A DNA stretch of 61,848 nt, taken from Candidatus Poribacteria bacterium (GTDB lineage Bacteria; Poribacteria; WGA-4E; WGA-3G). This document shows, piece by piece, positions 36,162 through 38,393 of this stretch. Numbering within the stretch: position 1 is the first letter of the stretch; every line of letters begins with the position of its first letter. Under the pieces are notes generated by a model. That model made no database searches. It was not told where the DNA came from and saw only the letters and a list, made by a program, of their open reading frames with translations. The stretch spans positions 1 to 61,848 of the forward strand of contig JAGWBU010000007.1 in assembly GCA_021295735.1 (NCBI GenBank), read 5' to 3'. The translations under genes were made by a program, and so were the position numbers.

Positions 36162-36288
36162 GGTATTATACCAATTCTATAAATGAATTTCCCTTTCGAA
36201 TTAGAATGTCCGAGGCGCAGCATGCCACAAGCGCATGCTGCGTTGATTCTTAAAAGGTATGTTATTTTATAGAAATGGTATTAGTACC
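36162..36288. mobile_element. Small inverted-repeat element, family C, with central hairpin
   Basis: Imperfect 22-bp terminal inverted repeats begin GGTATTATACCAATTC (36162-) and end AGAAATGGTATTAGTACC (-36288). In the middle a perfect 10-bp stem, CGCAGCATGC (36216-36225) / GCATGCTGCG (36233-36242), is present. No ORF. The end sequence TTTGGTATTA also occurs at the truncation points of the GT2 remnant (about 36062-36070) and of the TIR-like gene (about 50645-50656). Apart from this element, 36289-36403 shows nothing recognisable. Confidence 0.65.
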
Positions 36289-36403: not shown

Positions 36404-37189
36404 TCATCTATTTTGTAGTTCTTTATATTCCGCCTCTGATATGGGGTTTAGCGTTCCCCCAACTGCATGTGTTTCCTTTAGAAGTTGTAAAAACGATTCC
36501 TGTTCCTGAGTGTGTAATTCAGGATAGAGAGCTTTCAAAGCTTCTATCCCGGAGATCTCTTCCTCAATTGTCCTTTCTTTCCCTCCCACAATTTTTTTCA
36601 AGTACGCATACGCGGCCCTAACTTCTAGCGTATCTCCGAACTGTTTGATGAGCACATTAAGATCAGCGTTATATGTAGACCCTATGGGTCCTTTTTTCAG
36701 GCTCCACGGATCTTGCTTCTTAACAGACGCAGGTGTATTAGCCGCGTCGTCTCTCCAATCGTAATTCTTATCCGTGAGAACATCCTCCGTGTCGATATTT
36801 TTTTCAGGAATAATGTTATCTATAACGTGAGTTTGATAATTAACTGGACAGGCAAAAATTGAACAGAGAACGGGCATATTTGCTGAAAAAATCGTTATTC
36901 CCTTATCAGAGAGACTTTAAGAGGAAATGTGGAAGTTCTAACTATTTATCAAACTCACGTTATCTATACCTGAAACATTTACAGTTTTATTTGCATCAAC
37001 CGTTTGAGCCTCTGGCGGTACCTCAATGTGAACTTCTGAAGTCGAGTTGGTGTTGTTAGTATCTAATGGTACAGATGCAGGAACTTTTGGGGAAATGTTT
37101 CCAACCGGCTCATTTCTGTTTTCTCGGAACAAAACCCAACTGGTGCCCAAAACGATCAAAAGAATGACGGTGAGAATGAGCTTTTTCAT
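36404..37189 (-). pseudogene. Membrane-anchored protein of unknown function, split by a 138-bp element
   Basis: The minus-strand start is MKKLILTVILLIVLGTSWVL at ATG 37189, behind AAGGAGA: a single N-terminal membrane helix, then a Pro/Asn/Thr-rich linker. The frame runs to NVSGID, is interrupted by an inverted-repeat element (36824-36961) that brings in a stop, and resumes after the element as NIIPEKNIDTEDVL to the stop at 36404. Removing the element plus one copy of the 6-bp duplication joins the parts exactly in frame and gives a 213-aa protein with a helical C-terminal half (VRAAYAYLKKIVGG, IEEEISGIEALKALYPEL). I do not recognise the family. Likely inactive now, although the N-terminal 83 codons may still be made. 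Confidence 0.85.
36824..36961. mobile_element. 138-bp MITE-like insertion with perfect 16-bp terminal inverted repeats and 6-bp target duplication
   Basis: Left end AACGTGAGTTTGATAA (36824-36839) and right end TTATCAAACTCACGTT (36946-36961) are perfect inverses. ATCTAT flanks both sides (36818-36823 and 36962-36967) as a target-site duplication. The interior has no ORF of note. Element plus duplication is 144 bp. It interrupts the gene at 36404-37189. Confidence 0.9.
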
Positions 37190-37279
37190 TAGGAATCTCC
37201 TTATTGTAAGGTCCCAATACATACATGTCGCACTTTAATGCAACTTGAAGCAATATGTATTGGGACGAATAGAATTCTC

Positions 37280-37481
37280 AAAGTTGCTAACTTGAAGTCT
37301 GTCCACTGCAACTTTGCACTGTAACTGGAGGCATAGGCACAACGATAGTTGGGTGTTGAATGGCCGGTGCCCCGTGTTGAGGGTGGTTTGGTTGATTCAT
37401 TATATGATGAACTCATAGCGAGTAACATCTAAGAATCGTTGAAAGTAACTCGATAGTTTATCATTAAACTCATAGCGAGTA
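37280..37481. repeat. Short intergenic repeats upstream of the split gene
   Basis: Two features lie in the 37190-37493 gap. One is an 8-bp stem, AAAGTTGC (37280-37287) / GCAACTTT (37308-37315), around TAACTTGAAGTCTGTCC; the same core recurs at 54364-54394. The other is the direct repeat AACTCATAGCGAGTA at 37410-37424 and 37467-37481. No gene is supported here. Confidence 0.6.
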
Positions 37482-37493
37482 CGAGCTAAGAGT

Positions 37494-38393
37494 TTAACTT
37501 TTCAAACTAAAGCGATATGGAATGCGAAGACGTTGCGTAACGGCTACTTTGCCTTGCATCGCAGGTGTGAATAACGAGGATTTGAGTGCCTGAATCGCTG
37601 CTTCTTCACAACCAAGACCACTAATTCTTGTAACTTCAATAATCCGTATGTTCTGTGCTTTTCCATCTATGCCTATAGTGGCTTCAAGAACGACTAATCC
37701 CTCTTGGTGAGTAGATCGGGCAGATTCAGGATATACAGGATCAACTTTTTTGAGGAAGGTAGCGTTTTGGGTTGGTTCATTGATAGTCGGCATGTTTAAT
37801 GGAAGAGCATCTATCTGTAAGCTGTCTGAACCTACTACTGACAAATCCGAGTTCCGCTCAACCCGTTGCGGGGCAACGTTAACAGATGAAGTAAAAACTG
37901 GCTTCGTTCCAACTGACACTGTGACAGGGGGTTCAACATCAGATAAAGAGTTTTGTGGCGCATTCAGGGTGAAATTTGCTGTTAGTGTCGGGGTTTGGGC
38001 CAATGTCGTGACCTCAGAGGTTTCTGTCGTTATCACAGGCGTAATCGGACGTACCGTCTGAAGTTGTTGACGATGTAAACGAATAGGTTGTGGGACAACT
38101 AATTTCGGTATATGTTTTTTTATGGTAGGGAGTATAGCAACAGGTTTCGGAGTAGACATAGAAAAAACATCAATTTGCATAGCGTTGCTGTTACTATCTG
38201 TCGTTCTAACGGAAGATAGACCGATAATTGATATACCTATTAGATGCAAACAGACTGACAACATAAAAGACGTATTCGGTAAGAAACTACTGGAAAAAAG
38301 TTTTCCAATACCAAAACCTTTATGCGAACTCGGCTGTTGACTTCTTTTTGCGAAATATAAGAATTTGTTCACAATTTGGACAACTGTGTTCAT
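37494..38393 (-). CDS. TonB family protein (C-terminal TonB domain)
   Basis: The 299-aa protein has one N-terminal hydrophobic helix (SFMLSVCLHLIGISIIGL, about 42-60) and a long Thr/Val/Pro-rich periplasmic stretch. A C-terminal TonB domain follows (KKVDPVYPESARSTHQEGLVVLEATIGIDGKA.. in part, then ALKSSLFTPAMQGK). TonB couples inner-membrane proton motive force to outer-membrane transporters; single-helix proteins of this type also act in envelope assembly. No ExbB/ExbD genes are nearby. The N-terminal 40 residues before the helix are unusual for TonB, so a later start is possible. Confidence 0.85.
   Translation of the reverse strand: MNTVVQIVNKFLYFAKRSQQPSSHKGFGIGKLFSSSFLPNTSFMLSVCLHLIGISIIGLSSVRTTDSNSNAMQIDVFSMSTPKPVAILPTIKKHIPKLVVPQPIRLHRQQLQTVRPITPVITTETSEVTTLAQTPTLTANFTLNAPQNSLSDVEPPVTVSVGTKPVFTSSVNVAPQRVERNSDLSVVGSDSLQIDALPLNMPTINEPTQNATFLKKVDPVYPESARSTHQEGLVVLEATIGIDGKAQNIRIIEVTRISGLGCEEAAIQALKSSLFTPAMQGKVAVTQRLRIPYRFSLKS

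What the first reader, a model, noticed from the sequence alone, without database searches (positions are those of the whole stretch)
36404..37189. A 138-bp element with perfect TIRs and a 6-bp duplication splits a gene; excision restores it exactly
The sequence shows 16-bp perfect terminal inverted repeats (AACGTGAGTTTGATAA and its inverse), ATCTAT on both flanks, and a gene whose two halves rejoin in frame (NVSGID + NIIPEKN) when element plus one ATCTAT is removed. That is direct evidence for a recent, still-recognisable transposition by a non-autonomous element in this lineage. The 6-bp duplication and the TIR sequence should identify the transposase family.
Basis: seen in the sequence. Interest (0 to 1): 0.75.

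Follow-up and report, generated by a model that had tools for sequence, protein, structure and literature searches.

The report
Small IS982-type jumping element splitting gene
A short, gene-less piece of mobile DNA has landed inside a gene of a bacterium related to sponge symbionts; it is one of many similar pieces that seem to borrow the moving enzyme of a known type of bacterial insertion sequence, so it is a clear but ordinary case.

Summary
It breaks a 213-codon gene after 83 codons; distant relatives carry both halves in one frame. The genome (inferred: Candidatus Poribacteria) holds 136 places with these ends (control 3). Of 31 paired copies read, 25 have 6-9 bp target duplications. A second copy splits a DNA methylase gene whose 70% identical relative lacks it.

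In the home assembly the likely parent is seen as its two ends at three contig ends. So this is a MITE, probably moved in trans by IS982 transposase; Cardinium offers a precedent.

Caution: 11 of 13 copies of this type lack central bases in a pattern that suggests assembly trouble, so the true window copy may be about 159 bp. Ends and duplication are unaffected. New member of a known kind.

The parts
36825..36960 (.). non-autonomous element (MITE), 136 bp as assembled; two longer sister copies in the same genome are 158-159 bp
36825..36839 (+). inverted end ACGTGAGTTTGATAA
36946..36960 (-). inverted end ACGTGAGTTTGATAA (reverse strand)
36817..36824 (.). target duplication TATCTATA, left copy
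36961..36968 (.). target duplication TATCTATA, right copy
36969..37189 (-). 5' part of the interrupted gene (N-terminal hydrophobic stretch, likely membrane anchor, and start of linker)
   Evidence: 'membrane anchor' is read by eye
36404..36816 (-). 3' part of the interrupted gene (rest of linker and more conserved C-terminal part)
37197..37202 (-). AAGGAG, likely ribosome-binding site of the interrupted gene
   Evidence: read in the sequence; the label is from general knowledge
36938..36940 (-). first in-frame stop (TAG), inside the element; leaves an 83-codon stub

Best explanation
A miniature inverted-repeat element (MITE) without a transposase gene was inserted by an IS982-family transposase acting in trans on its ends, duplicating 8 bp (TATCTATA) inside a gene for a small, probably membrane-anchored poribacterial protein of unknown function, and so breaking that gene. 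Shown: the ends, the duplication, many sister copies with duplications, autonomous IS982 elements with the same ends in relatives, and both ends of such an IS982 at home contig ends. Inferred: that this transposase moved this copy, that the home genome holds a working transposase, and that the event is fairly recent.
For: Home genome: 136 matches to the 15-bp end with at most one mismatch, control 3; 38 whole or partial matches to the 150-base query. Of 31 paired copies found in 80 home loci, 25 have duplications of 6, 7, 8 or 9 bp (2, 10, 10, 3); pairing left flanks with other copies' right flanks gives 5 or more in 1.6% of 930. One-contig relative G010: 13 of 17 pairs picked have 6-8 bp; control 6 of 272 at 5 or more. 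Independent empty site: copy L004 sits in a DNA methylase gene (PF01555, 47.2 bits, cut-off 26.7, on its relative L243); in 19 of 19 relatives fetched the protein runs through without the insert, the closest at 70% identity with the same residues on both sides of the junction, the rest at 43-47%. Partner: a 303-residue frame in G010 scores 256.9 bits with the IS982 transposase model (cut-off 130) and 217.5 with PF13612 (cut-off 27); full-length elements in many Poribacteria loci end in the same sequence, and with two changes in Bacteroidales. The bases just inside both ends of the window element fit IS982 copy L156 best of the copies compared (score 49.0; L150 47.5). Home contig ends C76 (68 identical, 3 mismatches, 2 gaps) and C3 (70 identical, 7 mismatches, 2 gaps) match the two ends of L156; C108 equals C3 over 78 bases.
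Against: No IS982 transposase close to the G010 one is assembled in the home genome: 3 weak protein matches, 31-45% identity. 6 of 31 paired home copies show no duplication beyond TA (one of them has a masked flank), and 4 of 17 in G010 have 0-3 bp. 16 of 28 autonomous copies with readable flanks show fewer than 4 bp. L156, the best-fitting parent, has a broken transposase frame (two pieces). The window-type interior matches none of five IS982 bodies tested, so it is not a simple deletion derivative of those. The broken gene has no close ortholog: 22 of 58 family genomes (own included) have any match, at 25-53% identity outside the window gene.
Confidence: 0.94

Rival explanations
1. The 136-bp form is an assembly product: a copy of about 159 bp sits at this site, and the assembler lost central bases when joining two contig ends that each ran about 77 bp into the repeat. 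Ends, duplication and gene disruption stay true.
For: 11 of 13 N-free copies of this type lack 24-41 central bases; the longer arm is 75-79 bp in 8 of 9 junction types (71 in the ninth); chance 2.6e-5 if breakpoints were uniform, with the arm range chosen after seeing the data. Of 16 contig ends lying within 200 bases of a listed end sequence whose element runs off the contig, 14 run in 74-78 bp and two (C111, C118) 137 and 182 (positions, a capped list; contig lengths). In the one-contig relative 15 of 17 copies are 153-162 bp and two 144-145.
Against: Nine different junctions, one shared by three copies, would also fit true deletions that start near the middle; the middle of a 159-bp element lies close to 77 bp by coincidence.
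Confidence: 0.6
2. True internal deletions: longer copies lost parts of the middle, for example by interrupted gap repair after cut-and-paste movement, and some shortened forms then spread.
For: Three copies (L008, L009, L010) share one junction and have duplications of 7, 8 and 8 bp of different sequence.
Against: Same arm length as the depth of contig ends; no copy of 118-136 bp among 17 in G010; only 0-1 bp of shared sequence at the junctions.
Confidence: 0.35
3. The element is a working part of the gene (an in-frame insertion, or a start for the 157-codon downstream frame).
For: Element plus duplication is 144 bp, a multiple of three; an ATG inside the element opens a 157-codon frame.
Against: The eighth codon after the junction is a stop; 14 related places bridge the site without it; no ribosome-binding-like sequence before that ATG (by eye).
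Confidence: 0.03

Closest known systems
MITECca01, the MITE derived from ISCca4 (IS982 family) in the Cardinium endosymbiont of a spider (PMC9769881; parts 1 and 2 of 3 read)
   Same: Short gene-less element with ends of an IS982-family element and high copy number (169 there); found mostly between genes, less often in genes, in an animal-associated bacterium
   Different: Other phylum; about 240 bp; one main type plus a second, against four interior classes among 22 N-free copies here; intact copies of its parent are assembled, here only ends of a likely parent
IS982 family insertion sequences (PMC7335449; abstract, passages and section 4 read)
   Same: Ends starting AC, variable duplications (2-10 bp there, 6-9 bp here); partner elements of about 1 kb with an IS982 transposase
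   Different: The window element has no transposase; Poribacteria are not named in the main text of that paper (0 occurrences)

Membership tests
IS982 family (the autonomous partner in relatives) | IS982-type transposase | tested here: met
   NF033520 256.9 bits, cut-off 130, one G010 frame
IS982 family (the autonomous partner in relatives) | total length 845-1282 bp | tested here: met
   985-1045 bp in 28 copies kept by a 950-1060 bp filter; pairs outside that range were not counted, and the 28 include two Bacteroidota copies
IS982 family (ends) | ends begin with AC | tested here: met
   ACGTGAG; the boundary is partly chosen by this rule
IS982 family (ends) | consensus AC(N)6T(N)5TT | tested here: inconclusive
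   AC and T at position 9 met, TT at 15-16 not (sequence; rule)
IS982 family (ends) | direct repeats of 2-10 bp, variable | tested here: met
   6-9 bp in 25 of 31 home copies
MITE | short, no transposase gene, inverted ends, target duplication, many copies | tested here: met
MITE | ends shared with an autonomous element | tested here: met
MITE | moved in trans by that element's transposase | not testable with these tools
   needs an assay
MITE as internal-deletion derivative of its parent | interior derived from the parent's body | tested here: not met
   no match of the window-type interior to five IS982 bodies; only the outermost bases at each end resemble L156. The home parent's body is unknown

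The most novel reading that the evidence does not exclude
In Poribacteria one IS982 end sequence acts as a general mobile frame: repeatedly, unrelated fillers (four interior classes, 88-568 bp among 22 N-free copies), partly made of the genome's own dispersed repeats, have been enclosed between these ends and spread, rather than arising as deletion products of the parent; the central shortening of copies would then record how the element is repaired when it moves.
Probability: 0.2. Interest if true: 0.45.

Novelty: new member of a known kind. Interest (0 to 1): 0.22.

Why it matters
It ties a large crowd of repeats in Poribacteria to one transposase family, gives a way to recognise them (ACGTGAGTTTGATAA ends with mostly TA-bordered 6-9 bp duplications), accounts for at least two broken genes and for contig breaks in this genome, and warns that assembled lengths of such repeats in draft genomes may be wrong. 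Four searches of the held papers gave no report on MITEs or IS982 in Poribacteria, judged from listings.

Tried and rejected
Rfam: 0 matches in the window at gathering scores; tRNA or tmRNA: 0. Phage and plasmid records: no match to the element. Direct search for the parental transposase in the home genome: 3 weak matches; the end sequences at contig breaks were then recognised instead. A further, degenerate end of this kind lies inside contig C141 (88% over 56 bases) and was not followed. Close ortholog of the broken gene: none. No Pfam or NCBIfam match up to E 0.1 for either half. The first clustering of interiors joined 30 of 31 copies through composite or N-bearing copies; repeated with the 9 N-bearing copies dropped and a 50% coverage rule, it gives four classes of 13, 6, 2 and 1. 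The biological reading of the central deletions is kept only as a rival. Home places without a fetched locus (part) were not examined for duplications.

Full report
What is there. The window holds, at 36825-36960, a 136-bp element with perfect 15-bp inverted ends and 8-bp flanking repeats TATCTATA. Published IS982 elements begin with AC in 57 of 69 cases and have direct repeats of 2-10 bp when present (PMC7335449, section 4), which favours the 15-bp + 8-bp reading; home copy L012, with AATTGATA on both sides, fits it without mismatch.

The gene. On the minus strand, 37189-36404, a gene starts after a likely ribosome-binding sequence and is stopped by TAG at 36940-36938 inside the element, leaving 83 codons. 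The flanks form one frame of 213 codons. In 58 genomes of the family, 22 (own included) have a match; of 38 places other than the window gene, 14 run across the junction with no stop, at 25-31% identity. An alignment with four relatives shows the shared layout: hydrophobic N-terminus, variable linker, more conserved C-terminal part; the insertion lies in the linker. No family model matches either half. So the halves very likely belong together, but no close ortholog with an empty site was found.

The family of elements. In the home genome the 15-bp end occurs 136 times with at most one mismatch (control 3); all places in the capped listing are exact. In 80 home loci I found 31 pairs of ends (at most 2 mismatches each, 60-900 bp apart), 88-703 bp long; 25 have direct repeats of 6 (2), 7 (10), 8 (10) or 9 (3) bp; 6 have only TA, one of these with a masked flank. 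Swapping partners gives 5 or more in 1.6% of 930. The repeats mostly read TA...TA. In the one-contig relative G010, 72 places carry the end (control 1), and 13 of 17 short pairs picked from them have repeats of 6-8 bp. Among 39 genomes (own included) 24 match the 150-base query, but many of those matches cover only about bases 83-145, an interior stretch that in other genera also occurs without the left end.

An independent empty site. Home copy L004 lies in a DNA methylase gene; 132 bp of element plus repeat interrupt it. In 19 of 19 relatives fetched, the protein runs on without the insert; the closest, in G042, is 70% identical with the same residues around the site, the others 43-47%, and it matches PF01555. 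This shows that at least this sister copy is an insertion with a duplication.

The engine. In G010 four copies of about 1.01 kb with these ends (L099, L100, L102, L103) carry long transposase frames of 288-303 codons; a fifth (L101, 1.17 kb) has it broken. One intact frame scores 256.9 bits with the NCBI IS982 model (cut-off 130). Related frames occur in 47 of 58 family genomes at E up to 0.001, the home genome's weak matches included. Named records show the hosts to be Candidatus Poribacteria, and similar ends (two changes) in Bacteroidales; G010 has the contig length and copy positions of OY282386.1. That the home genome is a poribacterium is inferred from this kinship. Of 28 full-length copies with readable flanks (two from Bacteroidota), 10 have repeats of 6-8 bp, one 5, one 4 and 16 fewer.

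The parent at home. The home assembly has no good transposase match, but contig ends C3 and C108 carry one end, and C76 the other end, of an IS982 close to L156 of a sister species: 70 and 68 identical positions, 7 and 3 mismatches, 2 gaps each. The bases just inside the window element's ends also fit L156 best on both sides taken together, narrowly ahead of L150; L156 itself has a broken transposase frame. The simplest reading is that the parent is present in more than one copy and was not assembled.

A caution on length. Two of 13 N-free copies of the window's type are 158-159 bp; 11 lack 24-41 bp of the middle. In 8 of 9 junction types the longer arm is 75-79 bp (71 in the ninth). Contigs that end inside such elements run in 74-78 bp in 14 of 16 cases and 137 and 182 bp in the other two (positions, lengths; one search held 10 of the 14). 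G010 has 15 of 17 at 153-162 bp. I think it more likely than not that the shortening, the window copy included, is an assembly product; reads are needed.

Comparison. A close precedent is MITECca01 of Cardinium, an IS982-derived MITE with 169 copies (PMC9769881, parts 1 and 2 of 3 read). Here the window-type interior matches none of the five IS982 bodies tested, and 22 N-free home copies fall into four interior classes of 13, 6, 2 and 1. Searches for Poribacteria with miniature inverted-repeat, IS982, transposase plus insertion sequence, or mobile genetic elements plus transposon gave 0, 0, 4 and 7 papers; by their listings none is about this subject. The finding is sound and mostly ordinary.

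Noticed in passing
window 36166-36284: A second dispersed repeat with imperfect inverted arms (36168-36196 and 36253-36281, 79% complementary); 46 matches, itself included, in the home genome.
   Followed up: partly
L004 1501-1638 (G000:C60:35832-35969): Another copy of the same element interrupts a DNA methylase gene.
   Followed up: yes
G000 contig ends C3, C108, C76: Contigs stop 74-77 bp inside an IS982 element whose body is missing from the assembly.
   Followed up: partly
window 37410-37434 and 37467-37491: Two copies of a 25-bp direct repeat, 88% alike, downstream of the gene at 37494-38393.
   Followed up: no
L015 1501-1640: A copy that lacks one inverted end but seems to have TACGTA on both sides, as if a truncated element had moved (by eye).
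   Followed up: no
L204, L206, L220: Bacteroidales IS982 elements have the end ACGTGAGTTCGATAT, two changes from the poribacterial one.
   Followed up: no
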